Shown piece by piece: positions 2,549 to 63,869 of a DNA stretch of 64,000 nt (the first letter of the stretch is position 1; the number at the start of each line of letters is the position of its first letter). The position numbers were made by a program, and so were the translations under genes. This DNA is from Strigamia acuminata (lineage: Eukaryota > Arthropoda > Chilopoda > Geophilomorpha > Linotaeniidae): NCBI GenBank assembly GCA_949358305.1, contig OX442319.1, forward strand, positions 11,780,001-11,844,000. Reading direction: 5' to 3'. The notes beneath the pieces were generated by a model that was not told the origin of the DNA, did not search any database, and was given only the letters and a program-made list of their open reading frames with translations.

Positions 2549-2916
2549 TCAAGTGAAATAATCAATGACAGAAAATATTGAGAGTCCTGTCAGAATACCA
2601 ATAACGGATCCAATGTTACACAACAATTTAGAAACTGAAACTTTTCGCTGTTCTTCAATCACTTCTCGAATGTTCTGATTAATAGAGTACTTAACAACGG
2701 TGTCCCTAAAATCGTCTGTGCTTCGTACCACTGTTGGATGGAATATGGTTTCGTGGCAGCGTGCTGCGCAAGAACAGTCTTTCTGGGGGTTTGTCTTCAA
2801 TTGAGTTTCCAAATACATTTTGTGCGTTGCCTCAGCTGTTTTTTGAGTCTTGCAGAGCGGTTTCTTGCTGAACTCCATGAATGGTAATCTAGTAATTATT
2901 TCATTAATCATTTAAT

Positions 2917-4465
2917 GGGATGGGATACTTGGGTCGAAATGAATAAGGTCGAAACGGGATTTCGACCTTATTTATTTCGACCTTATTCATATAAAAATTT
3001 AGAGTTTCGACCTTATTCACGAATAAGATCGAAACAGGATTTCGACCTTAGTCATTTCGACCTTATTCATGAATAAGATCGAAATAGGATTTCGACCTTA
3101 GTCATTTCGACCCTAGTCATTTCAGAAAATGTAATTTCGACCTTAGTCATTTCGACCCTAGTCATTTCAGAAAATGTAATTTCGACCTTATTCATATAAT
3201 TTCATATAATGAATAAGGTCGAAACTCTAAATTTTTATATGAATAAGGTCGAAAGTCAAAAATTCAAAAACATGAGAATTTCCCATGAGAATCTCGTGTC
3301 TTCTCTCTTTCTCTAATCACAATCTAAGAAATGTTTTTTATCACATGTTTTATATAAGTTTTATATTGTCAGGAAACCAGAGCTTCTAGAAGAAACTATT
3401 TTTTATTTTTCTTATTTATTTTGTAAATAAGGAATAAAAAAACTTAATTTTAGCCTAAATAAAGTTGTTTTTATTTTGATATTGATTTAATTTTTTTTTG
3501 AATGTTAATTGGCATTATAAAGTGTGTACACACTGGCCTGATCCAACAATGCAAAAAACACCGCCTAAAACACCGCATCTATTACAAAATGCGCAGCGGC
3601 AGGCTGATTAGCGCATTTACCCGGTGCTTCACTGCAGCACGTCGACGCCATTTTCTTTCGGTTTTTCATATTTTTCACCTCGTTTTAACTCGTTTTTATC
3701 ATTTTTTTATAATTTCTTAACGTTTTTTCCATTTTTAAACCGTTTTTTAATGTTTTTCATGTTTTTTTCCCATTTTTTTTTCGGTTTTTTGCTGATTTTT
3801 CAGGTTTTTTTCAAGTTTTAATCAGGTTTTCATGGTTTTTATTATTTTTTTTGGTTTTAACCGGTCTTTTATCATCTTTTACGTGTTTTTCCAGTGTGTA
3901 CACACTTTATAATGCCAATTAACATTCAAAAAAAAAATTAAATCAATATCAAAATAAAAACAACTTTATTTAGGCTAAAATTAAGTTTTTTTATTCCTTA
4001 TTTACAAAATAAATGGGAAAAAATGGGAAAAAGTTTCTTCTAGAAGCTCTGGTTTCCTGAAATATAAAACATGTGATAAAAAACATTTCTTAGATTGTGA
4101 TTAGAGAAAGAGAGAAGACACGATATTCTCATGGAAAATTCTCATGTTTTTGAGTTTTTAAATTTTTGAGTTTCCACCTTATTCACATAAAAATTTAGAG
4201 TTTCGACCTTATTCATATAAAAATTTAGAGTTTCGACCTTATTCATGAATAAGATCGAAACAAGATTTCGACCTTAGTCATTTCGACCTTATTCATGAAT
4301 AAGGTAGAAACAGCATTTCGACCTTAGTCATTTCGACCCTAGTCATTTCGGTATACGTAAATTCGACGTTAATCATTTCGCCCAAAGATGGGATACTTGG
4401 GTAGAAATGAATAAGGTCGAAATCCCGTTTCGACCTTATTCATTTCGACCTTAGTATGAAATCCC
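2917..4465. mobile_element. 1.5-kb fold-back transposon in intron 10 of copy 1
   Basis: The flanking 8-bp duplication CATTTAAT lies at 2909-2916 and 4466-4473. The ends are inverted and built from repeats of TCGAAATGAATAAGGTCGAA. The arms, about 2917-3536 and 3886-4465, are near-complete reverse complements for several hundred bases. A T-rich centre separates them. There is no transposase. It sits only 28 bases upstream of the last-exon acceptor of copy 1. The superfamily is uncertain; the 8-bp duplication allows hAT-like or related groups. Confidence 0.8.
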
Positions 4466-5428
4466 CATTTAATTTGTGTGAACATTTAGGGGCTGGTTGA
4501 GGGATAATATTTGTCAATCTAGCGCCTTTGTGATTATTGTCACGAGTATCTAATGTCGTGTCTGGTGTTTTATCAACAGCTTTGGGAACACATTAGAATG
4601 TTACTCCCTCTGTCCTAAATTATGGTATACATTTCCAGTATTATATGAAACCAACGATGAACGAGAATGTTTAGAGAAAAAGTTGGACAAGGTGAATAGG
4701 AGAGTACCATTGTATTTGAAAGGCAACAAATCCGTTTTTTTTGTGTAGCTTTTCCATCTCGGTCATGTATAATTTTCAAAATGAATTCCAAGCTCAAAAA
4801 TATTATGAAATGACAAACTGGAATGCCTAATTTATGTTATTGTTTACAAAAAAGAATAGACAACACAAATCTTGCTCAAAACAGGAGTTAGTTAAGTGAA
4901 AAATTTCAATACTCTTGAAAATGGGTTCTACTGCATTACCAGTCACTGCTCAGCTACTTCTTGCTACACTCTTATTTAATATTTTTTTCTTCAAAGTAAA
5001 AAAAAAAACTGAAGACCAAAACTCAAACCTCGTTTTCAAATGTTGGAAAAGTTTGTCATAAATTTACCTGCAATTTAGTAGATCGTCTTTCAGTTTTGTT
5101 GCATAACATTTCCGTTCACATTCTGTAACTGCGTCGTTTTGCTGACAATGATTTTTCGGAGTATTTACACGTACTATCTATAAAGACAATGACCTGTTTA
5201 GAATAGGAGATTTTTTTCGTTCAGAAATTACCGTTTGACGAGAAAAATCAATTTTACAATTAAACGCTGTAGTAATGTAAAAAAGATGTTTCGGATGGGG
5301 AAATTGGTTTTGCGGTAGAATGAAGTGCTAGAGTGTACAGAATTATATAAGCAGTTAATTCGAAAATATCTTCAAAATATCTCACCGGCTGGTATCTGTT
5401 CCACGTTGCCCATTTAATATGGCGTTCT

Positions 5429-5981
5429 TGTTAGACTTTGGAACCACTTTTGAGTTATTTAAATCGTTTTTCGATGTGAAATGACTTTGAAATGTTTATT
5501 TTATTATCCATCGGTTATCTTTTCTTATTCGGGGTAATTTAGTATTGTTTCTTATGTTTTTCCTTAGTTTCTATGTAAAGGGAATGCATGATGCCTTTTA
5601 GATGTGTCTTATCCATCTGGCATCATGCATCCTCTATTCTGTGTGTATTTCTACTTATTGTTTCTATTTTCGGCCACCAGATGTCTCTGGCACATTACAA
5701 ATGGCCGCTCACACGGGTAGTGTGTTTCCTTGTGTTTGTCCAGTGATTCTGGACCCATTATGTAAGTTTTCTCTTAATAAATGTTATATTTTTGGTTAAC
5801 TATTGTATTTAGTTCGGCACTACACGTTTCTATAAGTGTAGTGCACGCGAATTTGATCGTAAGTCCGCTCAAACTCGCGTACGCGCATCACGCGCATTTG
5901 TCCGCACTTAGAAGTGCGTTTGACTCAGTTTTACGCTTCCTATCGCCTATTTCGGCGATATTTTTGCGCCACACAGCTACA
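5429..5981 (+). repeat. Copia 1 5' LTR
   Basis: 553 bp from TGTTAGACTTTGG to CAGCTACA. It appears identical to the 3' copy. An AATAAA lies near 5776, consistent with a polyadenylation signal. Confidence 0.95.
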
Positions 5982-5983
5982 AG

Positions 5984-5995
5984 TGGTAGCAGAGG
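5984..5995 (+). other. Copia 1 primer-binding site, tRNA-iMet
   Basis: TGGTAGCAGAGG begins two bases after the 5' LTR and is the exact complement of the 3' end of animal initiator tRNA-Met (CCTCTGCTACCA). It would prime minus-strand DNA synthesis. Confidence 0.85.
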
Positions 5996-6007
5996 CCTGG
6001 AAAGCCA

Positions 6008-6495
6008 CCAGTGCCTCGTTTTTCCATTAATTTTCCGTGAATTTCGCGATTTTTCGCGATTTTTGCGGAAATTTTTGTTTTTTTCAGATTTTCGACGATT
6101 TCCGGCAGTCAACAACGTCTTTATGACGTTCACAACCCCGGAGTGCGGTCGTAATCGTCGATTTTTGAATTTTTTCAACCTTTTTTCGTGTTTTTCGAGT
6201 TAAAAACACTGTTTTTTTGTGTTTTTCGAGTTAAAAACACTGGTTTTTGTGCATTTATTGTGCAAGATAGCGACAATTGACCTAGGAAAGGTCTTGTTCT
6301 TTTTTTTTCCCTCTAATTTTTCGTGAATTTCGCGATTTTTCGCGATTTTTGCGGAAATTTTATTTATTTTCAGATCTTTTCGCCGATTTTCATCATTTGT
6401 CACGTTCCGACAACGTCTGAGCGACGTTTTCATCCAGAAACGGGCATAACCCGCTGTCTGCACCCCGGAGTGCGACAGTATCGGCGATTTTCGGG
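6008..6495 (+). repeat. Duplicated leader segment of Copia 1
   Basis: A segment of about 150 bp occurs twice, near 6008-6165 and 6300-6495. Both copies contain GAATTTCGCGATTTTTCGCG, then a pyrimidine-rich CAG, then a CCCCGGAGTGCG motif. Between them, at about 6185-6240, a short unit TTTTTCGAGTTAAAAACACTG is repeated twice and can form small hairpins. The whole stretch 5996-6820 has no convincing coding sequence, so the element has a long structured leader and no visible capsid gene. Confidence 0.65.
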
Positions 6496-6918
6496 AAGTT
6501 TTTCCCGGTTTTCGAAATCGGTCGGCGATCTTTTGAAGAATTCCGCATTTTTTTATGCGCGGTGTGCACAGGGACGTCTGTGCATACAGATTCACCAACT
6601 TCTCCTTCTTTTTATTTCAGATTTCGAATTTATTTGTTAATTTTAAGTTTTTGGAGTGGGTCCCGATTAGTATCGGCACAGCCCTTCGGACATTCCGTCC
6701 AAGCTGTGCTTGTATTCTTAGACAAGGCTGAGCCCTGCGCCACCTAACATTCCCGCGGCCCCAGGTGGTCATAAAGGACGTTAGGGGGACACTTGTCTAA
6801 GGTTCTTAGCCAATTTTAGCATTGGCTCCCCGTCGAGGTTTTTCCGCTTCTAACAACGTTTAGTGAAGTGCTTCGAGTGAAAAGTGCTCCGATTACGTCT
6901 TTAGTGCCTCGAGTGTTT

Positions 6919-9900
6919 ATGCGTGCTCATTATCGCCATTATCTCCGATTTTCCTCTGGAAAAATGCAGACAGCAAGAGCCAACTTGAATTGGAATCGGT
7001 ACACGAAGGAAACATCGGCTTTTGCTATGGACAATCGTGGATGCAATCAATCCCGACCTCCTCGTCCGATTTCGAAGGTTCGCTGTTTTAATTGCGGCTT
7101 TTTCGGCCATTACGAGAATAAGTGCCCCCGCCCTCGCAAACAGGGCAAGGAACCGCAACCGGTCGCGTCTCAACAAGGCCGACCCCGCAGTAAGAGCAAA
7201 CGACGGCAGAATAACAGTTCGCAGCAATCCGGTGGTCAAAACCGTGATGTTTCTCGTCCCCGAAGGGACGCCGCTTACCTGTTGTCGGCTCCACCGGTGA
7301 TCGAAGCTCCGGTTGTACATTTTCTCCAGTCCCACGAATGGATTGTCGATTGTGGGGCCACCGACCACGTTTCGCACGTCAAAGCGTGGTTTACGAACTT
7401 TGTTTCCGTTGTCCCGTTCAACATCGAGTTAGGCCAGGGCAGTTCGAGGGTCACAGGCAAAGGTGACGTTCCGGTCAAGTCGCTCATCGATGGCTGCGAA
7501 TGCACCGTATTGCTCCGCGACGTATTATTCGCACCTGACTTCGGCGCCAATCTTATCTCGGTTTCTCGGATTGATAAATGCGGACATCACATCCACATTC
7601 ACAACTCGGAATTGCATACGTATGAAACGGACATCAAACTAAGTGTTCTTCGGGCGAAACAGAAGTCTGGACTTTATTTCGTGGATGGGCTCATCTCGCC
7701 ATTCGCCGCTCCGACTAATGTTTCGAGTTCGTCTGTTTCATCATCACTTCCGACTCCGATACCGACCACTCTAGTGACGAAGGAAGAGGACTTTCCCGCA
7801 TTGCCCAAGTCTTCCAACAAGACTAAGAAGAAGTCGGCTGACAATATGACCGATTTCCGCTTGCCCGTCTCCTCCAACACCTTGCTTGTCCCTTCACTTT
7901 TCCCTACCAGTCCTGCTCCTATTCCCGGATCCCAACCTCAACAGATCCGGATGTATTCCAATGCCCTCACATCTCCTCCTCCCGTTGCCAAGTCAAACGC
8001 AGCATTACCTCCCAAACCAGTTAATCCTTCGGTTGCCAACGTCGCAGACGCCACGGGATTGTGGCACGGCAGGCTGGGTCACCTGCATACGAAGGCCATG
8101 CGGACTTTAGCGGCTAACTCCCAGGTTTATGGGCTTGATCCAGCTGCTGTTCGCCAGGAACTTTCCTGCAACACGTGCCGTGTTGCCAAGTCCACGCGTG
8201 CTCCACATAAGCCAATTTCCGCGCCTTCAACCACGAAACCGCTTGAATTGCTTCACATGGACGTCTGGGGCCCGTCGAGACTGCCTTCCATCGGCGGTGC
8301 TAATTTTGCCTTCACCATTATCGATGACGCCACCAGGTACGCCTGGCTTTTCCCGATCGCCCGTAAATCCGATGTTTTTGCTACGTTTAAAGACTTTGTT
8401 TCCCGCGTTGAACGTATTGCTGATTGCCGGATTAAAACAATTCGCACCGACCGTGGAGGAGAATTTATTTCGAGGGATTTTGACCGTTTTCTTGCCGACA
8501 AGGGTATTGTTGCTCAACGGACCAATCCCGCATCGCCACAGATGAACGGTGTCGCCGAACGCCTGAACCGGACAATGGGCGACTATCTCCGCTCCATCAA
8601 CTCCGAAACCGGATTTTCGCACACGCTTTGGGCTGAACTTGCCGTGACGTTCACATATATCAAAAACCGCAGTCCGCATTCGAAGCTCAACGACGAAATC
8701 CCATACATTTTGTGGCGCCAGCGTGCTCTTTCCGTCAGACATTTTCGTAAGATTGGTTCCAAGTGCTGGGTACACTTCACCGCACCTGGACGCAACAAAC
8801 TGGATCCTCGAGCGTGGGAAGGATTTCTCGTTGGCTACGCTTCGGGAACTCGAGGGTATCGAGTGTGGAATCCGGCTACGAACACCGTCACCGAATCTGT
8901 TCACGTCCAAATCGATGAACGGCAGAACTTTAAGCGCTCGCCCTTTTATGTTCCAGATCCGGATGACAATGCTCCACCCATGGAGGAGCCTGCTCGTGGC
9001 CACACCCCGTCACGTGTCACTTTTCGTGATAACTTTCCAACTCAGCCTTGGCCTCGTCGACGTCACGATTCGGATAACGACTCTTCTGCTGACAGCAGTG
9101 ACGAGGATGGTATTGCCAGTCGTGCTCCCTCCGTCGCTTCGAGTGCTCCGTCTTTCGCTTCATTCGCACCATCTCTTCCTACAGCTGATGGTCTCATCGC
9201 CGCTGCTGACGGCTTAGCTGCTACGACTGATGGCTCTGTTACCGACGCTGATGGCTCTGTTACCGTCGCTGATGGCTCCGATAATGTTACGACCATTGCA
9301 GGACATGGACAATTTACTCCGACCGTACGTTCCACCCGCTTGCCTCATCTACGGCGTTCGATGTCCTACCCATCTCTCCCGGGTCTTGACGACACCGCAG
9401 CGATGTCTGAACAGGGTTCAGATTTTGACGAAGACCTTCTCGACGAAGCGGCTGCCTTGCCTGTCCGACTTCCGGGTACGCCTAATTTGGCGCCTTTACG
9501 CGCTCTTCATTGCCCTTGGAGTTTTGTTGGCGGCGTTTCGCCCTTCAGCGGATGGAGGAGAGAAGAGCATCTCCGGAAAGATCAGGTTCCGGGGAGGATT
9601 AAAGTCGACGTTTATTATTATCCGGAGCACGGTGTCCGCTTGCGGTCGCACACAGATATCGCCGCTTATTGTTTCGCACACCGGATACCGTATGATGAGT
9701 CCGTTTTCTTCTTCGGCAATTTAGAACACCACATGCCATATGCTCCGCCATCGCCTCCTCGTGTCCACATGTGTTTTCGGGAACCGGCCACATACGCCGA
9801 AGCTGTGAAATTGCCCGAAGCACCGAAATGGACCGAAGCAATCGACGAGGAACTTTCGACTTTCAAGCAACGAGACGTTTATAAGGAGGTTCCGAGACCC

Positions 9901-11307
9901 CCTGACAAGACTGTGCTCGGTTGCAAATGGATTTTTAAGTTCAAAAGTGACATTACCGGAAAGATTACCCGATATCGTGCTCGACTGGTCGCCCAAGGAT
10001 TTCGGCAGACAATGGGCGTTGACTACGATGAAGTTTTTAGTCCCGTAGTCAATTTTGTCCTAATCCGTTTCTTCTTTTGTCTGCTGGTTATTCTCCTCGG
10101 ATGGAGGGACACGCACCTCGACGTGAAATGTGCCTACCTCTACGGCGACCTTGACCACGAGATTTATATGCGGATTCCCGCTGGTGCCACATGTTCCTCG
10201 CCCGACAACGTATGGTTGTTGACCAAGTCGCTTTACGGTCTTCACCAGTCGGGGCGCATGTGGTACCAGAAACTTAATGAAACATTGACAGAACTCGGAT
10301 TTCAAAAGTTTCCAGCATGTAATTGTGTGTACGCCTACGGACATTCGGCCATTATGCTGGTATACGTCGACGATATTGTTTTATTTTATGCTTCGGAAAA
10401 CATCAGGGATCGAATACTCAAGCTGATCACGAGTAAATTCGACATTGTCGACCTGGGGCCAATCACCAAACTGCTGGGAGTCGAGTTCGAGCGTCGTGAC
10501 GGGAAAGTCTTTATGACTCAACGCAATTACATTGACAAACTCCTCAAAAAGTTTAATGTTTCATCTGACGCGCTCATCAAGGTGCCAGTCACACCTGGGA
10601 CCACGTTAGTCAAGGGACCGCTCACCGACCTTCCGGATTTTCCGTATCGATCACTCGTCGGATCTTTATTGTTCCTGGCTTCACGTACTCGCCCCGACAT
10701 TTTGTACTCGGTGATCGCATTATCGCAGTACAACAACTGCTACACCGAGAGCCATATCAAGTGTTTGCTGCAGGTCCTTCGTTACGTCGCGAACACGAGC
10801 GAGTACGCCATCGAACTTTCGAAATGCGATTCGAGTCAACTGTGGGGTTGCACAGACGCCTCTTGGGCCTCCGACATCGCTACATCGAGATCATTCGGCG
10901 GATACATTGTTTACATCGGAAGTGTGCCCATTGGCTGGAGCTGCAAGAAGCAGACCAGCGTCGCTTGCTCCACAATGGAAGCCGAATTTGTGGCACTTGT
11001 CGAAATCGTCAAAGAACTCTATTGGCTCGACAGTATTTATCAAGTGTTTCCACCTTTACGTCGGTTATCGAAACCGATCATATTTTCCGATGCCCTCGCC
11101 TCGATTCAGTTCACGAACAACGACATCGAGAACTCGAAAACGAAACATATTCGAGTGAAGTTTCACTGGCTTCGTGAGTGGCACATTGCCGGATGTTTCG
11201 AACTCCGCAAAATTCCGGGTGAGATAAATGTATCCGACATTTTCACCAAGTGGCTCAGTTCAGAGCGTCTTCGAAATTTATTATCTCGGATTTTCGTCTC
11301 GAAGTAA
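6919..11307 (+). CDS. pol: Copia 1 polyprotein (zinc knuckle, PR, IN, MBD-like, RT, RNase H)
   Basis: The frame is open from 6820 to 11307. The first ATG is at 6919; positions here count codons from 6868. In order: CCHC knuckle from residue 73 (CFNCGFFGHYENKC), protease motif DCGA at 161, the GAG-pre-integrase and Cys region (CNTC) about 400-440, integrase catalytic Asp about 465, Asp in RTDRGGEF about 528, Glu in NGVAERLN about 564, MBD-like segment about 887-950, reverse transcriptase with YVDD at 1166, RNase H with TDASW about 1330. The catalytic Asp of Copia proteases is usually in D(S/T)GA; Cys replaces Ser or Thr here. Only a knuckle remains of Gag, and no capsid domain is seen in this ORF or in the leader. 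The frame is otherwise uninterrupted and the LTRs look identical, so this is a young copy. It may use capsid supplied in trans. Confidence 0.93.
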   Translation: MRAHYRHYLRFSSGKMQTARANLNWNRYTKETSAFAMDNRGCNQSRPPRPISKVRCFNCGFFGHYENKCPRPRKQGKEPQPVASQQGRPRSKSKRRQNNSSQQSGGQNRDVSRPRRDAAYLLSAPPVIEAPVVHFLQSHEWIVDCGATDHVSHVKAWFTNFVSVVPFNIELGQGSSRVTGKGDVPVKSLIDGCECTVLLRDVLFAPDFGANLISVSRIDKCGHHIHIHNSELHTYETDIKLSVLRAKQKSGLYFVDGLISPFAAPTNVSSSSVSSSLPTPIPTTLVTKEEDFPALPKSSNKTKKKSADNMTDFRLPVSSNTLLVPSLFPTSPAPIPGSQPQQIRMYSNALTSPPPVAKSNAALPPKPVNPSVANVADATGLWHGRLGHLHTKAMRTLAANSQVYGLDPAAVRQELSCNTCRVAKSTRAPHKPISAPSTTKPLELLHMDVWGPSRLPSIGGANFAFTIIDDATRYAWLFPIARKSDVFATFKDFVSRVERIADCRIKTIRTDRGGEFISRDFDRFLADKGIVAQRTNPASPQMNGVAERLNRTMGDYLRSINSETGFSHTLWAELAVTFTYIKNRSPHSKLNDEIPYILWRQRALSVRHFRKIGSKCWVHFTAPGRNKLDPRAWEGFLVGYASGTRGYRVWNPATNTVTESVHVQIDERQNFKRSPFYVPDPDDNAPPMEEPARGHTPSRVTFRDNFPTQPWPRRRHDSDNDSSADSSDEDGIASRAPSVASSAPSFASFAPSLPTADGLIAAADGLAATTDGSVTDADGSVTVADGSDNVTTIAGHGQFTPTVRSTRLPHLRRSMSYPSLPGLDDTAAMSEQGSDFDEDLLDEAAALPVRLPGTPNLAPLRALHCPWSFVGGVSPFSGWRREEHLRKDQVPGRIKVDVYYYPEHGVRLRSHTDIAAYCFAHRIPYDESVFFFGNLEHHMPYAPPSPPRVHMCFREPATYAEAVKLPEAPKWTEAIDEELSTFKQRDVYKEVPRPPDKTVLGCKWIFKFKSDITGKITRYRARLVAQGFRQTMGVDYDEVFSPVVNFVLIRFFFCLLVILLGWRDTHLDVKCAYLYGDLDHEIYMRIPAGATCSSPDNVWLLTKSLYGLHQSGRMWYQKLNETLTELGFQKFPACNCVYAYGHSAIMLVYVDDIVLFYASENIRDRILKLITSKFDIVDLGPITKLLGVEFERRDGKVFMTQRNYIDKLLKKFNVSSDALIKVPVTPGTTLVKGPLTDLPDFPYRSLVGSLLFLASRTRPDILYSVIALSQYNNCYTESHIKCLLQVLRYVANTSEYAIELSKCDSSQLWGCTDASWASDIATSRSFGGYIVYIGSVPIGWSCKKQTSVACSTMEAEFVALVEIVKELYWLDSIYQVFPPLRRLSKPIIFSDALASIQFTNNDIENSKTKHIRVKFHWLREWHIAGCFELRKIPGEINVSDIFTKWLSSERLRNLLSRIFVSK
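9520..9720 (+). other. MBD-like domain encoded within Copia 1 pol
   Basis: The segment contains SGWRREEHLRK, then KVDVYYYPEHG, then RLRSHTDIAAY and a later FFFG. This is the order and spacing of the methyl-CpG-binding domain core (GW..., DVYY..P.G...RS...A.Y...F.F..G). The positions that contact methylated CpG in MBD proteins appear kept: Arg after the GW block (codon 9574), Asp (9607), Tyr (9613) and Arg (9643), corresponding to MeCP2 R111, D121, Y123 and R133. The domain lies between integrase and reverse transcriptase, a place where Copia elements normally have only a variable linker. The assignment is by eye. Confidence 0.75.
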
Positions 11308-11355
11308 CTTTTTTTCGATTGTTTAGCACCGACATTTTACATCGAAGGAGGGAAT

Positions 11356-11908
11356 TGTTAGACTTTGGAACCACTTTTGAGTTATTTAAATCGTTTTTCG
11401 ATGTGAAATGACTTTGAAATGTTTATTTTATTATCCATCGGTTATCTTTTCTTATTCGGGGTAATTTAGTATTGTTTCTTATGTTTTTCCTTAGTTTCTA
11501 TGTAAAGGGAATGCATGATGCCTTTTAGATGTGTCTTATCCATCTGGCATCATGCATCCTCTATTCTGTGTGTATTTCTACTTATTGTTTCTATTTTCGG
11601 CCACCAGATGTCTCTGGCACATTACAAATGGCCGCTCACACGGGTAGTGTGTTTCCTTGTGTTTGTCCAGTGATTCTGGACCCATTATGTAAGTTTTCTC
11701 TTAATAAATGTTATATTTTTGGTTAACTATTGTATTTAGTTCGGCACTACACGTTTCTATAAGTGTAGTGCACGCGAATTTGATCGTAAGTCCGCTCAAA
11801 CTCGCGTACGCGCATCACGCGCATTTGTCCGCACTTAGAAGTGCGTTTGACTCAGTTTTACGCTTCCTATCGCCTATTTCGGCGATATTTTTGCGCCACA
11901 CAGCTACA
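11356..11908 (+). repeat. Copia 1 3' LTR
   Basis: 553 bp, visually identical to the 5' LTR, ending CAGCTACA directly before the GTTCT target duplication. It is preceded by a purine tract GAAGGAGGGAA. Confidence 0.95.
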
Positions 11909-13257
11909 GTTCTTTAGCGTTTTGAAAGCGAAGAAATAGATAGTTTAAATTTCGAGAATACCGCACATGATCTGCAAATAGTTAAAGCAAGATGAAAACA
12001 AGCAAATAACTTTGAAATGTGGCATAAGCTGTCTGATATTTCTACGTCTCCTGAAAGCAGTGCATGTTCCAAATTCTGTGGTCACAATTGATATATTGGC
12101 GGACATCAGATCTTGTATTACTTTGTGCTATTTAAAGGATAAGTAGTTTGTATGCGAGTGAGTTTAATTTAATTTTCTATTTATTTGCTTACTTGCGAGA
12201 TATATTTTTGAAACCAAAAATATTGATTAAAATTAGAAGAAGCGTTCCATAATTTAAGTGGTTCGTTTGCAAATTCAGATGATTCATGAAGTAAATCGAT
12301 TAGTCGGTAATCATGACATTGTGTTTTCAGCTTTCTAGCTAATTTTCTCTTCGCTTCTAATATTACTTTGTTTTCATCACAGGCAATAATGAGGGGGAAA
12401 TCAATGATTTCATCTGCCTGGAGACTGACAGTTTTGTAGAGTGGATAATCAAAATACATATCAATCAAATCGTAAACGTAGTAAACTGAAACAAAGAGCA
12501 GGAACATTGATACGGTTATTTTGAGTTTCTTTTTAACCAATGGTTGTTTTTGTATTTTATGCTTTGTTTCTAGCAGCATTTGAATTTTTTCTGTCAACTT
12601 GAAATTTTCTTTTCTTGATTTGTTGGGCTTCCCAAGAGGTATTTTGCAGTAGTAGACAATTATTTCAATTAGCGTTAAACAAGACATTCCGAAATAGAGG
12701 CCGAAGTTGCCTCCAATGTCGCACAACAAAAAGATGAAATCGTAGGAAAAACTTTCTTTCAATGTTCGAATGAAACTATTTGAAACGTAAACTTCTAGGG
12801 TATCTTCTCCTTCGTGGGGTATGACGTCGTATGTTGTGCTTTGTTGTGTTACATCACATAAATTGAGACAATTACATTCCCTTATTACATTTGTTTGGAG
12901 AAGTTTATTGTAGAAGCCATCCCACTCCTTACAACTTTGTGATGGATTGCATTTTGGAAGCTTTCGTGCTTCATAAAACGGATATCTAGAAGAATAAGAA
13001 TGTAACTTTAGTTTAATTTACATTCATTCTCGGGATTTTATTTGGTTGTATTATACAGTATAGAGCAGTAGCCAATGGACAAACTTTGATTTTGCCGTGC
13101 TATTTGGACACCAGACAATGTATGGAAAAAATTGGATTGTATAACAACACCTCAATGCTCCTTACCACATCTATCCACAACCAAGGCGCACCTTTACTAT
13201 TCGGCTAAAAGGGCTTTGTCCATGGACTTTCTAATAAACATACATTCGGTTTATGTA

Positions 13258-13460
13258 CAGTCGTGTTCAAAAAAACTGGACCCTTACTATAATTTTGTGT
13301 TTTGCCACTAGGTTAAACACTAGACATCAACAGGTGATAATACAGACAAGTATTATCACTTGTTGATTGTCTGGTGTTTCACCTACTGGCAAAACACAAA
13401 ATTACTCACAAGTTCAATTGCTAGCATAGAGTGAGGGTCCAGTTTTTTTGAACACGACTG
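13258..13460. mobile_element. TA-flanked MITE (Tc1/mariner type) in intron 5 of copy 1
   Basis: A 203-bp palindrome-like element. Its ends CAGTCGTGTTCAAAAAAACT are inverted at both sides, with TA at 13256-13257 and 13461-13462. Nearly the whole length pairs with itself. It has no coding capacity. CAGT-like ends and a TA duplication fit Tc1/mariner-derived MITEs. Confidence 0.85.
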
Positions 13461-14571
13461 TATATGCTGCACCAAATCGATAACAAAATTTATTAGAAGT
13501 TTAGCTACTCATGTATTTGCTTGGTACGTGTGTTCACAGATTTCTCATCCAACTCCATAATGGAGTCCCCATCCCATACAGTGATAGGTAATGAAAGTAA
13601 CAGTGCTGTACCTGCATTTAAAATGTTTCACTAAACATGGTTGCAAGCAGTCGTGTAAGTTGTTGTCACATGGATTTCTTTTCGTGTTGATAAAATGATA
13701 CTGAAACAAGTTGGAATATGCGTAAACATATATTTTGCAAAAATGTTGTTGCTATTATTTGTACCATCTTCAATCTTTCTACATGTTATCACCTTTCTTT
13801 CAGATCAAGGCAGATTAATTTAAATTTGACTTGTTCTGACTTGTCTGCAACCTCAATGTAATTGCTTTTTGAATACTTCAATTAAAACAGATTTTATATT
13901 GGTGAACATTTAGAACAGACTTTATCATAAAAGATTGGTATCAAACTTTTAACAGACTTAATTTTATTATTTGAACTATAATAATGTCCATTTTAAGCTA
14001 TTTGTATATGCACTAGCCGGTATAACTTTGCGGCTGAGTAAGTACAAAACAGGTTGTCGACAGGTAAAGTGGTAAACAAATACGACATCATTGCTCAATA
14101 CACTTAAGATGCTACATCACCATTTGAAAAACGTCCGTTGATAGTTTTAAATAGCTTGAGCCTAAACTGGTGTAGCACTAAATTTTATGTGAGTTTTATT
14201 TCTTACTTTCTGTATGTTAGCTGTTGCTTGGTTCATAGTACCATCTATATATATCTGTTCGACAAGTGAGTGAGGTATGTAATACACAATTGGTGAGGGA
14301 TCTACCAATACCTATAAATAAAAATAACAAATTACAATGGCGATTTTAGCACTTGATGCCATTGGCAACTAAAAGAAATCACATTTTATTGCTGTCGATT
14401 AACCTGATTTTATTGAAAGAAAATTGGGGTGTTTGTTGCTGTGTTTGATTCCTCGCATATTGTCACATTTAGAAAATTATATCACTTGGATGCTTTCTTT
14501 GATGGAAAAGAACGTATCTGTGTGATATAATATTGAAGACAAAAAAAGGCATTTCAAACTCTGTACAGTCG

Positions 14572-45555: not shown

Positions 45556-45559
45556 CGAT

Positions 45560-50700: not shown

Positions 50701-53700
50701 ATCTGTTAAAGTGTTCTTATATTTTTATATCTTTTTTTTTCTTTTATTTATTTATTTATTTATTTTTATTTCTTACGAAAATTATTGTGTATGTGTTTGT
50801 GTGTTTTTTCTACCTCCCTGCACGCCTCGTCAAAGCTATGTTTAGCCGCGTTTGTGCGATTGAATGCGGCCGAACATCGCCCGCATTCGACCGTACAAAT
50901 GCGGGCGATGTTCGGCCGCATTCGATTGCACAAATACGGGCGATGTTCAGTCGCATTTGAGCGATTGAATGCGGCCGAACATCGCCCGCATTTGTGCGAT
51001 CGAATGCGGGCGATGTTCGGCCACATTCAATCGCAATAATGCGTCCAAACATCGCTTTGACGAGGCCACACACGAGGCGATCTATCGCTAAAAAAATGGC
51101 GCCTTGTTTTGGCCAATTATTGGCCAATGCGCATGCGCGCCCTATACGTACTATACGTATAGAGCAACGTATAGAGCAACGTATAGTTCAAATCTATACG
51201 TTCATTTTTAAAGTTTTTAAACGTATAACTTATACTTTTAACTTATAAGTTATAAGTTATAAGTTATAAGTTTGAAAAAAGTCCAATCGCAAAACCTCTA
51301 TTATTGAAATAACAATTAAAAGAACCATTAAAAATGACTTAAAATCGAGAAAATAAAACAAAAAAAGCCCAACCTGCGCATGTAGCGACGAACAAATGAC
51401 CAAAAAAGGCCTAAAACCGAATCGGGTGTTTATTCGCCCGGTCGGTTATAGGCCTTTTTTGATCGTTTGTTCGTCGCTGTCCACTGCGTGCGCCAGTTCG
51501 GCTTTTTTTGTTTATTTTCTCGATTTTTAGTTGATTTGAAAGGGAAATTTAATCATTTTTAGTAAAAAAAAAAAAAAATGCTTCCGCATTTGATCCGCAA
51601 TCCGCGGATTGATTGCGGATCGGATCGGATCGGATCGGCCAATCAGGGAATGCAGATCGGATCGGATCCGCATTTTCGATCCGCACTATTTTCGGATCTT
51701 GTGCGGATTGGTCAGAATTTGATCCAATCCGATCCGTTAACAAGCTTAGTTGGTGATCGATGGTGTGTGGACTTTCTACAAGTAATAAACATTCAGTTTA
51801 TGTACATAATATACTAAATCGATTACAAAAATCATTTGAAGTTAGTGACCAACTTGCCACCGCGAATCGGCACTGGCAACATTAAGCAGAGGATCCTCAG
51901 CAGCTCCTACGGCGCACCGTCGCAGCTGCATCCTGATTGCAGCCAATCAGGACAGAGGATTATGCAAAGTGTCAGTCTGTGGCTTGACTGCAACGACCGA
52001 CACGGATAGTCACGGAACAACACCAGCCACGTGGGTGACTGGTTGCATTGCTACACGTAAGGCGATGGCAATACCAATAACTAGCGATCCGTTGGGCCAT
52101 GCTGCAACGCACCTTCTTAAAGTTCAGAAGAATATATAATCGTATTGTCTTTGACTTGTATTTTACTCCATGGGAGTGTTGAAATAAATAATAATAATAA
52201 TAATAATAATAATAAGATAAGATAACCGACCAAGTGGTCAGCGGTTGTCCGGGTTGGGTTGCTGAAGGGCAACCCAACAACCAAGGCAATAACACGACAA
52301 CACACTAACCCCTAGACAACCATGGCAATAAAGAATATCAATTCTAAACTAGGTGTCAGTGTTTTATTTAATTGTGATTGGTGTCGAAACGTCCATGATC
52401 CTCCTTTGACCATGAGGCGACCGACCACCACTCACAAATTTTGCTACTGATATTGTCTTTTGTCAGTTTCTGAAGAATGGATTCACTCATGTATTTGCTT
52501 GGTGCGAGCGTGTTCACAGATTTTTCATCCCCATAATGGAGTCCGCATCTCATACAGTGATAGGCAATGAAAGTAACAGTGCTGTACCTGCATTTAAAAT
52601 GTTTCACTAAACATGGTTGCAAGCAGTCATGCAAGTTGTTGTCACATGGATTTCTTTTTGTGTTGATAAAATGATACTGAAACAAGTTGGAATATGCTTA
52701 AACACACATATTTTGTAAAAATGTTGTTGCTATTATTTGTACCATCTTCAATCTTTCTACATGTTATCATCTTTCTTTCAGATCAAGGCAGATTAATCTA
52801 AATTTGACTTGTTCTGACTTGTCTGCAACCTCAATGTAAATGCTTTTTGAATACTTCAATTGTGTGACTTATTTTTAGGTTTTGTGATATCAAGCCAATG
52901 GAGAGCTCAATACCACAACAGCCAATAGCAGGAGTGCTATACATGCATTAAAACAGATTTTATATTGGTGAACATGTAGAACAGACTTTATCATATAAGA
53001 TTGGTATCAAACTTTTAACCGACTTAATTTTATTATTTGAACTATAATAATGTCCATTTTAAGCTATTTGTATATGCACTAGCCGGTATAACTTTGCGGC
53101 TGAGTAAGTACAAAACAGGTGGTCAACAGGTGAAGTGATAAACAAATACGACATCTTTGCTCAATACACTTAAGATGCTACTTCACCATTTGAAATATGT
53201 GCGTTGATCTTTTTAAATGTTTTGAGTTTTAATTCTTACTTTCTGTATGTTAGCTGTTGCTTGGTTCATAGTACCACCTATAAACATCAATCCGATAAAT
53301 ACGTGCGGAATGTAATACACAATTGGTGAGGGATCTACCAATACCTATAAAGGGAAATAACAAATTACAATGGTTTCAACAAGTGCATTAGGATGGATTT
53401 GGTCCATTCAATCCTGGCTGAATTGTGAGGACAAGTTGTGTAAAGGAAAGACAGAACTGATTCTTATTTAAAGAAAAATTGAGGTCTTTGTTGCTGCGTT
53501 TGCTTTCCCACGCAAACTGGAAAAAATCTTTCCACGCACTTTGAGGAAGGCATCGAGAAAGTTTTTTCAGGACACCCCATGCGAAAAAGTCATATACGGT
53601 ATCCATGTTGCAGATATATTCAACTTATAGTCCACACAAAATGTTTTAACTAACGAAAGACTTACTTTCATAAGGTTACATGCTTTTGGGAATTTCAGTT

Positions 53701-54425
53701 TTACTATCATCTTGTAATTATTATTTCCAAATGGAAAAGACAATGCTAAATAAAAATAACTTTCAAAACAGAAATACTAAATGAGGAATGAGAGTAAATT
53801 ATTTGTAGACTTACGGCTAGAAACTTGTGTTGCTGGATAAAAGGCGTCATACGGTTTAACTGTTAGGTTAACTTGCGATTTACCCTGAAAAATTGTCATG
53901 TTTATTTTTAAATTTAAAATTTTATTTGCAGATTAGAGTAAGAAGTTAAAAGTTAAAATAGCTTACCACTGCAAAGTAGGCATCGGTTACGTAACTGTGT
54001 ACACTCAAATGTTTAAGTAAGAGGTCAAAGTTATAATCATCTATGAAATTATTAATTCCTCCTTGACCACATTGCTCTTTTTTAATGTGATTATTCAATT
54101 CTTGGGTAGTATGTGGATAAAAATAAACAAATGGAAAATAACCATGCGATGTTTCAATCATGCTTGCATCCACGGATGTTGGCTCGTCCATGTAATGCAA
54201 TATTCGATCTGTAGTTTGGTAAGCACAAGCTGCCATACTCATTGCGAGTATCGTAAAAAACAAAATGCAGAGATTCTTTTTCTTGTGTGAAATGTTTTTC
54301 ATCGATTTGATGAATGGTGGAATCTTTGTTTGCTCTGCCAAAACAGTGCCGACAAGCTGATGTAGTTTTCGATTTCGAAGTCGTTGAATCCGGCCAATCG
54401 GCTGGTTTAACGTTTCTGCTTCCAT
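47721..54425 (-). CDS. Tandem two-module DEG/ENaC channel, copy 3 (intact)
   Basis: Exons on the minus strand: 53967-54425, 53815-53884, 53666-53745, 53240-53344, 52588-52676, 49027-49822, 48881-48962, 48704-48804, 48543-48638, 48377-48486, 47721-48063. They total 2331 nt, 776 aa plus stop, all in phase. Exon 6 is 796 nt because of an extra glutamine codon at its donor (CAG CAA before gtaagc). Exon 11 ends in FIC and TAG rather than FT and TGA. Module A TM2 reads IGGNLGLYFGMSCL; module B TM2 has the GLS filter-like triplet. The module A N-terminal ectodomain segment around GQGGINNFIDDYN differs most from the other copies, suggesting divergent surface specificity. Introns carry a fold-back element, a composite retroelement remnant and a short 23-bp array, but exons are clean. 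Confidence 0.88.
50200..50285. repeat. 23-bp repeat, short array in intron 5 of copy 3
   Basis: About three units of GGAATGTGACACAATATCCATTC, preceded by one inverted unit. It is homologous in position and sequence to the longer array in copy 2 (27926-28148). Confidence 0.85.
50377..51747. mobile_element. 1.4-kb fold-back element in intron 5 of copy 3
   Basis: Inverted ends AAGCTTGTTAA are followed on both sides by many GATCCGATCCGCGGATTG-type words. The 10-bp duplication AGTTGGTGAT flanks it at 50367-50376 and 51748-51757. The interior has a cluster of CGAACATCGCCCGCATT repeats in both orientations (50850-51060), blocks of AACTTATAACTTATA and its complement, and a second inverted repeat at 51361-51490 containing GCGACGAACAAATGA. 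It has no transposase. The 9-10 bp duplication resembles MULE-type elements. Confidence 0.8.
51842..52450. mobile_element. Composite retroelement remnant with (TAA)n tail
   Basis: Present in intron 5 of copy 3 but absent from copies 1, 2 and 4, where the flanking words are adjacent. It includes GC-richer sequence ending GAGTGTTGAAATAAA and a (TAA)n run at about 52184-52216, as at the 3' end of many non-LTR elements. Other sequence follows (CCGACCAAGTGGTCAGCGG ... CCACCACTCAC). No reverse transcriptase is encoded. The class is uncertain. Confidence 0.5.
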
Positions 54426-54475: not shown

Positions 54476-54479
54476 AGAT

Positions 54480-56479: not shown

Positions 56480-56481
56480 TA

Positions 56482-59846: not shown

Positions 59847-62800
59847 CTATCTAGTGAAATAATCAATGACAGAAAATATTGAGAGTCCGGTCAGAATACC
59901 GATAACGGATCCAATGTTACACAACAATTTGGTAACTGAATCTTTTCTCTGTTCTTCAATCACTTCTCGAATGTTCTGATTAATAGAGTACTTAACAACG
60001 GTGTTCATATAATCGCCTGTGCTGTGTACCACTGATGGATGAAATATGGTTTCGTGGCAGCGTGCTGCGCAAGAACAGTCTTTCTGTGGGTTTGTCTTCA
60101 ATTGAGTTTCCAAATACATTTTGTGCGTTGCCTCAGCTGTTTTTTGAGTCTGGCAGAGCGGTTTCTTGCTTTTTTCCATGAATGGTAATCTAGTAATTAT
60201 TTCATTAAGAATTTAATTTGTATGAACATTTAGGGGCTGTTTGAGGGATAGTATTTGCCAATCTAGCAGCATCTTCTTAATTATTATCATCACTTCATAT
60301 CATAGTGATATTTGTTTAAGTAAATAACTTCAATTCTTTTGGAAATGGGTTGTACTACATTAAAAGTCACTGCTCAGCTACCTTTTGATACACTCTTACT
60401 AATTAAATATTTTTTTTCCAAGTAAAAAGAAACCAAAGACCAAAACTGATACCTCGGTCTCCAAATGTTGGAAACCAAAACAAGGTTTTTCAGAAATCTA
60501 CCTGCAATTTTGTAGACGGTCTTTCAGTTTCGTTGCATAGCATTTCCGTTCACATTCTGTAACTGCATCGTTTTGCTGACAAAGAATTTTCGGAGTATTT
60601 ACTCGTATTATCTATAAAGACAATGACATGTTAAGATAATAAGAGATTTTCTTTTCGTTCAGAAATTACCGTTTGACGAAAAAAATCAATTTTAGAATTA
60701 AAAGCTGTAGTTATGTAAAAAAGATGTTTCGGGTGGAGAAATTGGTTTCGCGGTAGAATGAAGTGCTAGAGTGCACAGAACTATATAAGCAACAAATTGT
60801 TCATTTTAAAATGTCTTCAAAATATCTCACTGGCTGGTATCTGTTCCACGTTGCCCACTTAATACGGCGATCTTTAGCGTTTCGAAAGCGAAGAAATAGA
60901 TAGTTTGTATTTCGAGAATACGTCGCATGATCTGCAAATAGTTAAAGCAAGATGAAAACAAGCCAATAACTTTGAAATGTGGCATAAGCTGTCAGATATT
61001 TCTACTTTTTCTGAAAGCAGTGCATGATCCAAATTCTGTGGTCACAATCGATATATTGACGGACATTAGATCCTGTATTATCTTGTGCTATGTAAAGGAT
61101 AAGTAGCTTATTGCGAGTAAGTTTAATTTAATTTTCTATTTATTTGCTTACCTGCTTCAAGATCAGTTTTTGAAATATTTCGTATTGATTAAAATTAGAA
61201 GAAGCATTCCATAATTTAAGTGGTTTGTTTGCAAATTGGGATGATTCGTGAAGTAAATCGAATAGTCGGTAATCATGACATTGTGTTTTCAGCTTTCTAG
61301 CTAATTTTCTCTTCGCTTCTAATATTTCTTCATTTTCATCACAGGCAATAATAAGGGGGAAATGAATAATTTCATCTGCGGTGAGACTAACAGTTTTGTA
61401 AAGTTGATATTCAAAATACGTATCAATCAAATCGTAAACGTAATAAACTGAAACAAAGAGCAGGAACACTGATAGGGTTATTTTGAGTTTCTTTTTAACC
61501 AATGGTTGTTTTTGTATTTTCTGCTTTGTTTCTAGCAGCACTTGAATTTTTTCCATCAACTTTGAGTTTTCTTTTCTTGATTTGTTGGACTTCACAAAAG
61601 GGATTTTGCAGCAGTGGACAATTATTTCAACGAGCGTTAAACAAGACATGCCGAAATAGAGGCCGAGGTTCCCTCCAATGTTGCACAACAAAAAGATGAA
61701 ATCGTAGGAAAAACTTTCTTTCAGTGTTCGAACGTAACTATTTGCAACGTAAACTTCTAGGGTATCTTCTCCTTTGTGGGGGGTGACATCGTAAGTTATG
61801 CTTTGTTGTGTTACATCACATAAATTGATACAATTGCATTCCTTTAATACATTTGTTTCGGTAAGATTTTCGTTCACGGCAACCCACTCCTCAAAACTTT
61901 GTGATGGATTACATTTTGGAAGCTTTCGTGCTTCATGAAACGGATATCTAGAACAATAAGAATGTAACTTTAGTCTAATTTACAATCAGTCTCGGTATTT
62001 TATTTGGTTGTACTATATACAGCAGTAGCAAATGGACAAACTTTATGAGTTTGCCGTGCTATTTGGACACTAGCCAACGTATGGACAAAGTTGGATTACA
62101 AAACAACACCTCAATGCTCTCTACCACAACTATCCCCAACCAAGGGCACCTTCACCATTAAGCTAAAAGGGCTTTGTCCATGGACTCTAATAAACATACA
62201 TTTGGTTTATGTACTGTACATGCTGTACTGAACCGATAACAAAAATTATTAGAAGTTTAGCATCATGTATTTGCTTGGTACGTGTGTTCACAGATTTCTC
62301 ATCCAACTCCATAATGGAGTCCCCAAATCATACAGTGATAGGCAATCAAAGTAACAGTGATGTACCTGCATTTAAAAAATTTCACTAAACATGGTTGCAA
62401 GCAGTCGTGTAAGTTGTTGTCACATGGATTTCTTTTTGTGTTGATAAAGTGATACTGAAACAAGTAGAAGTATGCTTAAACACATATATTTTGCAAAATG
62501 TTATTTCTATTATTTGTACCATCTTCAATCTTTCTATATCTGATCATCTCTCTTTCAGATCAAGGCAGATGAATCTAAATTTGACTTGATCTGACCTGTC
62601 AGCAACCTCAATGTAATTGCTCATTGAATACTTCAGTCGTGTCTATGAAACTTCTGTGACTTATTGTTAGGTTTGGTGGTCTTAAGCCAATGGAGAGCTC
62701 AATACCACAACAGCCAACAGGAGGAGTGCCATACGTGCATTAAAGCAGGCTTTTTATTAGTGAACATACGAGGTCACTTCATTTCGTCGCCATTCATTTC

Positions 62801-63869
62801 GTCGCCATATCATTTCGTCGCCATATCATTTCGTCGCCATATAATTTCGTCGCCATATAATTTCGTCGCCATGTCATTGTTGTGGCATTTTGCCAACTTG
62901 TAGTCAAATTCTGGCAAACTTGTGGAAACATTAAGGCCAGATTGTGGCAACATTGAGGCCAAATTGTGGCAACATTGAGGCCAAATTGTGGCAACATTGA
63001 GGCCAAATTGTGGCAACATTGAGGCCAAATTGTGGCAAAATTCTGGCCAATTTGTGGCAAAATTCTGGCAAAAATGTGGCAAAATTCTGGCAAAAATGTG
63101 GCAAAATTCTGGCTAAATTGTGACCAAATCCTGGTCAAATTGTGGCAAATGTTTCGGTTACTTAGCAGTATCATTTCGTCGCCCTTCATTTCGTTGCCTT
63201 GTCATTTCGTCGCCCTTCTGTTCGGTTTGGGTTGTTTTGGTTGTTCAGCCGTATCATTTCGTCGCCCATTTTCCGTTTTGGGTGTCATTTCGTCGCCAAA
63301 AACGGCGACGAAATGAAGGGCGATAAAATGAAGAAACCCCCTTGTAAGGGGTTAACGGATTGGCTCCCGCTAATCCCCACTGTACGCCATTTTGTATTTT
63401 GTTAAATAAACCAGTCTTTCGCAACTTTAACCCTTGCATGTATCGATTTAGACTCACAATACTGTCACCATGTAAAAACACTTGATCATAACAGATTGGT
63501 GTCAAAGTTATAACTGACTTAATTTTGTTATTTGAACTGTAATAATGTCAATTTTTTAAGTTATTAACAAATGCCCGAGCAGGAATATCTTTTGCTGCTG
63601 AGTAAGCACAAAACAGGTTGTCAACACGTGAAGTAATAAACGGATACGACATTAAAATATACTTAAAATGCACATTACATTTGAAAGACTTCCCTAGATG
63701 GTCTTTAAATATTTTTAGACTAAACTGGTGTAGCAATAACTTTTATTTGAGTTTTAATTCTTACTTTCTGTATGCCAGCTGTCACTTGGTTCATAGTACC
63801 ATCTATAAACATATCTTCGATTAATGCGCGAGGTATGTAATACACAATTGGTGAGGGATCTACTAATAC
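59847..63869 (-). CDS. Tandem two-module DEG/ENaC channel, copy 4 (5' part outside window)
   Basis: Exons 4-11 are visible on the minus strand: 63765-63869, 62366-62454, 61152-61947, 61006-61087, 60831-60931, 60670-60765, 60502-60611, 59847-60189. By analogy, exons 1-3 lie beyond 64000. All phases match the other copies. Exon 6 is 796 nt and again runs from module A (YPF..., Cys pairs, IGGNLGLYFGMSCL) through the Lys-rich linker into module B TM1 (SVFLLFVSVYYVYDLID) without a stop. Exon 11 ends VIDYFTR and TGA. No internal stop or frameshift is seen in the visible part. Intron 4 has gained a repeat-rich fold-back element. Confidence 0.87.
62771..63336. mobile_element. Fold-back element with CATTTCGTCGCC repeats in intron 4 of copy 4
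   Basis: The left side has five or more units of ATCATTTCGTCGCCAT. The right side has the same words and a hairpin, TCATTTCGTCGCC then AAAAAC then GGCGACGAAATGA, at about 63284-63315. The outer ends are inverted (TTCATTTCGTCGCC). Copy 2 lacks this DNA. Exact borders and target duplication are not clear. Confidence 0.6.
62925..63125. repeat. 22-bp tandem repeats in the fold-back element
   Basis: About five units of CATTGAGGCCAAATTGTGGCAA, then a derived unit AATTCTGGCAAAAATGTGGC several times. ORFs on both strands are repeat translations. Confidence 0.85.

What the first reader, a model, noticed from the sequence alone, without database searches (positions are those of the whole stretch)
2549..63869. 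A family of genes encoding two DEG/ENaC channel modules in one protein
Seen: in all four paralogs one open exon (12193-12985, 26732-27524, 49027-49822, 61152-61947) runs from the Cys-rich pre-TM2 region and TM2 of module A, through a Lys-rich linker of about 42 residues, into TM1 and the first ectodomain part of module B. There is no stop and no splice site between. The full models are in phase from ATG to stop (769-776 aa). Known: DEG/ENaC subunits have two TMs and assemble as trimers. Inference: this is a covalent tandem of two different subunits, a DEG/ENaC parallel to tandem-pore potassium channels. It raises a stoichiometry puzzle, because a trimer cannot be built from whole dimers without leaving a module out. 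I do not know of a described natural case.
Basis: partly seen in the sequence, partly recalled or inferred. Interest (0 to 1): 0.93.

Follow-up and report, generated by a model that had tools for sequence, protein, structure and literature searches.

The report
Centipede genes fusing two sodium-channel subunits
A centipede genome carries a very large family of genes that each appear to encode two DEG/ENaC-type ion-channel subunits joined end to end in one protein, an arrangement we found described nowhere and one that would test how these normally three-part channels assemble.

Summary
The core observation holds. At the stated coordinates (minus strand) one open exon runs from TM2 of a DEG/ENaC module A, through a 43-residue Lys-rich linker, into TM1 of module B. 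Two complete 11-exon genes lie in the window (769 and 776 aa). The fourth completes to 774 aa only with three exons outside it; the first is broken in exon 8 by a young Copia LTR retrotransposon. The genome fits Strigamia acuminata. The family is far larger than four: 138 of 138 scored genome matches span TM2-A, linker and TM1-B, and three capped exon lists imply about 208 gene units. In the 90 of 138 that I read, the fusion is open in 90, with linker dN/dS 0.54 (95% 0.45-0.66). Four of six related S. maritima gene models also carry it. Both modules share intron phases 0,1,0,0,2, suggesting fusion of tandem duplicates. An ectodomain patch has dN/dS 1.57. Most likely these are sensory cation channels whose fused chain supplies two of three pore positions; expression, function and assembly are untested. 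Open-access paper searches found no description.

The parts
47721..54425 (-). Gene G3, complete, 776 aa. Exons: E1 53967-54425, E2 53815-53884, E3 53666-53745, E4 53240-53344, E5 52588-52676, E6 49027-49822, E7 48881-48962, E8 48704-48804, E9 48543-48638, E10 48377-48486, E11 47721-48063
   Evidence: open frame, GT-AG introns; sites conserved among paralogs; PF00858. The E9 acceptor was chosen to keep the frame; S. maritima models T1JC02 and T1IZ33 join at the same place
19483..30693 (-). Gene G2, complete, 769 aa. Exons: E1 30250-30693, E2 30098-30167, E3 29949-30028, E4 29137-29241, E5 28452-28540, E6 26732-27524, E7 26586-26667, E8 26411-26511, E9 26250-26345, E10 26086-26195, E11 19483-19822
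59847..63869 (-). Gene G4, exons 4-11 (E4 63765-63869, E5 62366-62454, E6 61152-61947, E7 61006-61087, E8 60831-60931, E9 60670-60765, E10 60502-60611, E11 59847-60189); exons 1-3 lie beyond the window (extended positions 65407-64666); 774 aa in all
2549..15638 (-). Gene G1, broken: E1 15177-15638, E2 15025-15094, E3 14875-14954, E4 14207-14311, E5 13612-13700, E6 12193-12985, E7 12046-12127, E8 split (pieces at about 11909-11971 and 5386-5428), E9 5232-5327, E10 5068-5177, E11 2549-2888
   Evidence: interruption
12193..12985 (-). Exon 6 of G1: TM2-A + linker + TM1-B in one open frame
26732..27524 (-). Exon 6 of G2 (fusion exon)
49027..49822 (-). Exon 6 of G3 (fusion exon); its open frame (P0003) was the query of the genome search
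61152..61947 (-). Exon 6 of G4 (fusion exon)
5428..11909 (+). Copia-type LTR retrotransposon inserted in exon 8 of G1; LTRs 5428-5982 and 11355-11909
   Evidence: (RVT_2, rve, gag_pre-integrs)

Best explanation
Two tandem DEG/ENaC genes fused in a centipede ancestor: the last exon of the upstream copy joined the first exon of the downstream copy. The result is one polypeptide, N(in)-TM1A-ectoA-TM2A-[Lys-rich cytoplasmic linker]-TM1B-ectoB-TM2B-C(in), which is topologically continuous because both ends of a DEG/ENaC subunit are cytoplasmic. The fused gene multiplied into well over a hundred copies. TM2-A, linker and TM1-B are under purifying selection, while a patch of ectodomain A diversifies. 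Most likely the products are sensory (chemo- or thermosensory) cation channels in which each fused chain supplies two of the three pore positions in cis, the third coming from a single-module subunit or from a module of a second chain. Shown: fusion exon, copy number, selection, intron parallels, presence in two species' sequences. Inferred: one mRNA, membrane topology, channel activity, sensory role, stoichiometry.
For: One open exon over the fusion in the four window genes. 138 of 138 scored genome matches span it. In the 90 of 138 read, 90 are open from TM2-A to TM1-B, with 50-60 residues between fixed anchors in 90 of 90. Pooled dN/dS over 40 disjoint pairs: TM2-A 0.20 (0.15-0.26), linker 0.54 (0.45-0.66), TM1-B 0.43 (0.32-0.55). 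G-x-S filter of A in 87 of 90; linker K+R median 14 against D+E median 3. E1 precedes and E11 follows E6 on the same strand within 25 kb in 79 of 138, with E1 and E11 lists cut at 150. S. maritima models T1IVW1, T1JC02, T1JF29 and T1JFH9 carry the fusion. Intron phases are 0,1,0,0,2 in both modules, and introns 4 and 5 fall in matching columns of the A/B profile alignment (hhalign prob 97.3). No Met is conserved in the linker (best position 38 of 90); GTRAG occurs inside the region in 13 of 90 against 66 of 90 at the true donor region. Diversifying patch at reference 27-48: 1.57 (1.25-2.04) over 40 pairs, 1.91 (1.49-2.66) over the 28 of 40 pairs without indels there. S. maritima lacks insect odorant receptors, and its lineage-specific duplicates are enriched for sodium transport and taste (PMC4244043, passages).
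Against: No transcript evidence was available. Two of six S. maritima models remove part of the fusion: T1IVZ0 drops TM2-A and much of the linker, T1IZ33 drops most of the linker. T1IVZ0 nearly repeats T1JFH9, which keeps it, so I read this as annotation, but splicing is not excluded. 80 of 90 copies have some Met in the linker. No His-Gly motif before TM1 in either module. AlphaFold models were poor (pLDDT 55 and 30), so there is no structural support. G1 is broken, and 13 of 138 matches hold a stop. Some near-identical copies and copies on small contigs may be assembly duplicates. Gene conversion may distort dS. Sensory function is by analogy only.
Confidence: 0.62

Rival explanations
1. Three fused chains assemble as six modules, forming two linked trimeric pores (A3 beside B3, or mixed): a double-barrelled channel with no module left out.
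For: Both modules keep a G-x-S filter: A in 87 of 90; B as G-L-S in the four window genes, L083 and T1IZ33, the only ones looked at. In 16 of the 20 PDB rows that match the profile the number of chains is divisible by three, consistent with trimers.
Against: No structural or biochemical data; A and B are only about 25% identical.
Confidence: 0.25
2. Two fused chains make a four-module pore, as tandem-pore K2P channels do.
For: One report finds ASIC1a tetramers at the cell surface and functional dimeric, trimeric and tetrameric ASIC1a concatemers (PMC4529235, passages). Fusion of two subunits fits an even-numbered pore naturally.
Against: Solved ASIC1 and ENaC are trimers (PMC10148893, passages); 16 of 20 matching PDB rows have chain numbers divisible by three.
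Confidence: 0.12
3. The modules end up as two separate proteins, by internal initiation, alternative splicing or cleavage in the linker, so the fusion is only a gene-structure curiosity.
For: T1IVZ0 and T1IZ33 models splice within exon 6; 80 of 90 copies have some Met in the linker.
Against: No linker Met is conserved (best position 38 of 90), internal GTRAG donors are rare (13 of 90), and linker length and coding selection are kept. Splicing as in T1IVZ0 would remove TM2-A and upset topology (inference).
Confidence: 0.12
4. The family is largely non-functional: tandem gene debris with leftover open frames.
For: G1 is broken by Copia. Of 138 matches 13 hold a stop. L057's frame ends at reference residue 238 and L109's begins at 53. 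The L062 match has stops in E1 and E3.
Against: dN/dS well below 1 at TMs and linker; 90 of 90 copies read are open over the fusion.
Confidence: 0.05
5. Assembly error or chimeric joining of neighbouring genes in the reference.
For: None seen.
Against: Same fusion at 138 places on C1, C6, C8, C9 and small contigs and in models from another species' assembly.
Confidence: 0.01

Closest known systems
DEG/ENaC (PF00858, ASC) subunits: ASIC1, ENaC, FaNaC, pickpockets
   Same: Both modules match PF00858 over its cut-off; TM1, Cys-rich ectodomain, TM2 with G-x-S in each module; PDB profile hits to ASIC1, ASIC2, ASIC5 and FaNaC1
   Different: Two modules per polypeptide joined by a linker; no His-Gly before TM1; module B ends at TM2 with almost no C-terminal tail
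Broad-range thermal receptor 1 (8ymw, 8ymx, 8ymr) and PDPNaC1 (9jf7)
   Same: Best solved-structure matches of the family profile; 8ymw aligns over profile positions 238-583, the module B part. I recall BRTNaC1 as a centipede heat receptor; no paper on it was read
   Different: Single-module chains of 421-431 residues
Engineered ASIC concatemers
   Same: Subunits linked head to tail are functional (PMC10329638, PMC4529235; passages)
   Different: Artificial; in PMC10329638 Gly/Ser/Ala-rich linkers of 19 residues; here natural, Lys-rich, conserved, and of two different modules
Tandem-pore (K2P) potassium channels
   Same: Two pore modules in one chain (recalled)
   Different: Unrelated fold and an even-numbered pore, so no stoichiometry puzzle (recalled)
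Expanded gustatory and ionotropic receptors of S. maritima
   Same: Lineage-specific expansions (77 GR, 69 IR-family genes; PMC4244043, passages)
   Different: Different protein families; DEG/ENaC is not among the six families that survey searched

Membership tests
DEG/ENaC superfamily | Pfam ASC profile over gathering score, in each module | tested here: met
   Full G3 105.6 bits; module B 60.6 bits over profile 28-452; module A 50.8 bits; cut-off 23.6. The best stretch of A covers profile 298-455, so the N-terminal part of A is divergent
DEG/ENaC superfamily | Two membrane spans per module flanking an ectodomain | tested here: met
   Hydropathy segments 51-69, 362-380, 424-442 and 758-776 in G3; one further segment at 211-229 inside ectodomain A is unexplained
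DEG/ENaC superfamily | G/S-x-S selectivity filter in TM2 (motif recalled) | tested here: met
   A: 87 of 90. B: G-L-S in the four window genes, L083 and T1IZ33; not counted genome-wide
DEG/ENaC superfamily | His-Gly gating motif before TM1 (recalled; typical, but family membership here rests on the Pfam profile, not on it) | tested here: not met
   Read by eye in G2-G4 models: no HG before TM1-A or in the linker
DEG/ENaC superfamily | Trimeric assembly and amiloride-sensitive Na+ current | not testable with these tools
   No experiment; AlphaFold models unusable
DEG/ENaC superfamily | Hand-like ectodomain fold | tested here: inconclusive
   pLDDT 55 and 30; no fold search run; the sequence profile reaches solved members
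Chemosensory receptor family (functional class) | Large repertoire with a variable ectodomain (suggestive; other families show this too) | tested here: met
   138 scored fusion exons, about 208 units; dN/dS 1.57 patch
Chemosensory receptor family (functional class) | Expression in sensory neurons and ligand response | not testable with these tools
   No expression data

The most novel reading that the evidence does not exclude
Centipedes of a lineage without insect-type odorant receptors evolved their largest sensory receptor repertoire from natural tandem-dimer DEG/ENaC channels. Each variable fused chain fixes two of the three pore positions, and a shared single-module partner (an Orco-like co-subunit) supplies the third.
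Probability: 0.25. Interest if true: 0.93.

Novelty: new variant of a known kind. Interest (0 to 1): 0.8.

Why it matters
A natural, selected, covalently paired DEG/ENaC subunit would make channel stoichiometry testable with wild-type genes: the fused chain must be completed, doubled or partly excluded to give a trimer. The trimer-versus-tetramer question raised for ASIC1a could be asked in a system where evolution fixed the pairing. The family's size and its diversifying ectodomain patch, in a genus where odorant receptors are reported absent (S. maritima), also point to a receptor repertoire that we found recorded nowhere.

Tried and rejected
Structure prediction of the exon-6 family alignment (pLDDT 55) and of S. 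maritima T1IZ33 (pLDDT 30) gave nothing usable; no fold search was run. Searches for wider relatives with the full model, the exon-6 alignment and a full alignment found family members only in S. maritima: six models P0006-P0011, plus P0019 (T1J6S2), which I did not read. The other seven hits scored far lower (83 bits or less against 204 or more); of these I read P0012 (S. maritima), P0013 (Daphnia pulex) and P0016 (the millipede Chamberlinius hualienensis), all single-module, and did not read P0014, P0015, P0017 and P0018 (Gigantopelta aegis). I do not know which centipede proteomes that collection holds, so restriction to Strigamia is not shown. Rejected: assembly artefact (138 places, second species); chance open frame. 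Solo copies of module A or B cannot be excluded, because the genome lists stop at the best 138-150. The hypervariable patch was rechecked without indel-bearing pairs. Exon 1 residues 121-135 were dropped as evidence of selection because dS there is as high as dN.

Full report
What is in the window. The four candidate genes lie on the minus strand. I rebuilt gene models from splice sites conserved among the paralogs. G2 (19483-30693) encodes 769 aa and G3 (47721-54425) 776 aa, each in 11 exons. G4 has exons 4-11 in the window; its first three exons lie 0.7-1.4 kb past the window end and complete a 774-aa frame. G1 is open from exon 1 to exon 7, but exon 8 is interrupted by a 6.48-kb element at about 5428-11909. 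It has Copia-type domains (RVT_2, rve, gag_pre-integrs) and 555-nt LTRs matching at 554 of 555 positions, so the insertion is young. The claim of four full models is therefore wrong for G1 and could not be seen inside the window for G4.

Where it comes from. The window's assembly is 237,517,015 bases in 157 contigs. Strigamia acuminata qcStrAcum1.1 is 237.5 Mb in 158 scaffolds, with chromosome 1 of 66.99 Mb, chromosome 2 of 37.79 Mb and chromosome 6 of 14.72 Mb (PMC10556566, abstract and passages). Contigs C1, C3 and C8 are 66.99, 37.79 and 14.71 Mb. I infer that the window is on chromosome 6 of that centipede.

Membership. PF00858 matches the full G3 model at 105.6 bits, module B alone at 60.6 bits over nearly the whole profile, and module A alone at 50.8 bits, best over its last third. 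A and B align with each other (BLASTP E 9e-10, 26% over 147 residues; hhalign probability 97.3, 294 columns, 25%). Intron phases are 0,1,0,0,2 in each module, and introns 4 and 5 fall in matching alignment columns; introns 1-3 lie where the alignment is weak. This points to two tandem copies of one gene whose facing exons merged. The nearest solved structures by profile are single-module chains named Broad-range thermal receptor 1 and PDPNaC1, then ASICs and FaNaC1.

Genome-wide. Searching the assembly with the G3 exon-6 peptide gave 138 scored matches out of 1528 first-look candidates, E 2.5e-189 to 1.7e-66, on C1, C6, C8, C9, C30, C76 and C95. All 138 run from query residue 42 or earlier to 261 or later, that is across TM2-A, linker and TM1-B (ranges recounted). 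13 of 138 hold a stop inside the match. Nine of these were read, and none has it between TM2-A and TM1-B; four were not read. The tool says such counts are lower bounds; on the other side, some near-identical copies may be assembly duplicates. Searches with exon 11 and exon 1 each filled their limit of 150. On each strand, E6 has E1 as previous and E11 as next neighbour within 25 kb in 79 of 138. Of the other 59, 17 have only E11, 17 only E1, 13 E11 on both sides, 5 E1 on both sides, 1 E11 before only, and 6 neither. Because the lists are cut, these cannot be read as solo modules. Merging the three lists implies about 208 units by a simple ordering rule. Three divergent loci were read further by tblastn. 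L062 matches E1-E7, E9 and E10, with stops in the E1 and E3 matches, and an exon 11 lies 9 kb downstream (C8:8705896). L083 matches E5-E7 and E9-E11, and an exon 1 lies upstream (C6:2263701). L084 matches only E5 and E6 in its 7 kb. So the full two-module layout is directly shown for the window genes and supported, not proven, elsewhere.

Selection. I read 90 of the 138 fusion exons (30 and 60). All 90 match in one stretch and are open over the fusion, with at least 91 of 99 reference positions filled between TM2-A and TM1-B. The distance between two anchors flanking the linker is 50-60 residues in 90 of 90. L057, whose frame ends at reference residue 238, and L109, whose frame begins at 53, were dropped from the rate analysis. 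From the remaining 88, 40 disjoint nearest pairs (dS 0.03-0.9) were pooled. dN/dS (bootstrap 95%): TM2-A 0.20 (0.15-0.26), linker 0.54 (0.45-0.66), TM1-B 0.43 (0.32-0.55). A patch of ectodomain A (reference 27-48) gives 1.57 (1.25-2.04). As a control for misalignment I kept only the 28 of 40 pairs with no indel differences around the patch: patch 1.91 (1.49-2.66), linker 0.49 (0.38-0.65). Among the window genes alone the linker ratio is 0.67 and TM2-A 0.23. In window exon 1, residues 121-135 are also very divergent, but with dS 1.15 against dN 0.85, so I do not count that as selection. Gene conversion was not modelled.

Could the halves be separate proteins? No Met is conserved between TM2-A and TM1-B (best position 38 of 90), though 80 of 90 have one somewhere. 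GTRAG donors occur inside the region in 13 of 90, against 66 of 90 near the true exon end. Of six S. maritima models, T1IVW1, T1JC02, T1JF29 and T1JFH9 run through the fusion. T1IZ33 lacks most of the linker, and T1IVZ0 lacks TM2-A and much of the linker although it otherwise nearly repeats T1JFH9. These are uncharacterised UniProt entries, so they show sequence conservation, not expression.

How it probably works. Both termini of a DEG/ENaC subunit are cytoplasmic (recalled), so a cytoplasmic linker (K+R median 14, D+E median 3) joins C-end to N-end without a topological problem. Engineered head-to-tail ASIC concatemers, including a dimeric one, are functional (PMC4529235 and PMC10329638, passages). 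Both modules keep G-x-S. I therefore favour a working channel in which the fused chain supplies two pore positions. Whether the third comes from a single-module partner or a second chain, or whether three chains make two pores, is open. A variable receptor family with a diversifying ectodomain suggests sensory ligands. S. maritima has no odorant receptors, and its lineage-specific duplicates are enriched for sodium transport and taste (PMC4244043, passages); that paper's main text names no ENaC, degenerin or pickpocket. Thermosensation is an alternative, since the nearest solved relative is named a thermal receptor.

Novelty. Ten paper searches were made in open-licence PubMed Central: nine bearing on such channels or on Strigamia receptors and one on centipede genomes. 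Their listings showed no natural two-module DEG/ENaC; subscription papers and preprints were not searched. A DEG/ENaC review speaks of two-helix subunits forming trimers and has no 'tandem', 'concatemer' or 'fusion' in its main text (PMC10148893). A myriapod genome paper names no ENaC or amiloride (PMC9151784). I rate this a new variant of a known kind.

Noticed in passing
5428-11909: Nearly intact Copia LTR retrotransposon: 1495-aa open frame with an MBD hit just over its cut-off, LTRs 554 of 555 identical; described only.
   Followed up: yes
21552-25669 (+): A second Copia-type element (gag and integrase domains in its first open frame, 21552-23534, the only part scanned) lies between exons 10 and 11 of G2.
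   Followed up: partly
33976-40343 (+): Two long open frames (696 and 1435 aa) between G2 and G3; only a zinc-knuckle hit below cut-off in the first; the second was not scanned. Probably another mobile element.
   Followed up: partly
41630-43309 (+): 559-aa open frame with no Pfam match at E 0.001.
   Followed up: partly
526-1855, 55508-55765, 59111-59547, 62797-63201: Minisatellite-like arrays seen in the ORF comparison; the first two shift by 20 and 31 bases.
   Followed up: no
introns of G1-G4, e.g. 13480-14120 and counterparts: Several introns look as similar between paralogs as the exons, suggesting recent duplication or gene conversion (by eye).
   Followed up: no
L044/L045, L050/L051, L090/L091, L097/L099: Identical or near-identical fusion exons about 11-42 kb apart on C1, pointing to very recent segmental duplications or assembly duplicates.
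   Followed up: no
G3 residues 211-229 (exon 4, 53240-53344): A hydrophobic stretch inside ectodomain A reaches TM-like hydropathy; its role is unexplained.
   Followed up: no
L037:1501-2292: Here sequence like exon 5 and exon 6 lies in one 339-aa open frame, so intron 5 may have been lost.
   Followed up: no
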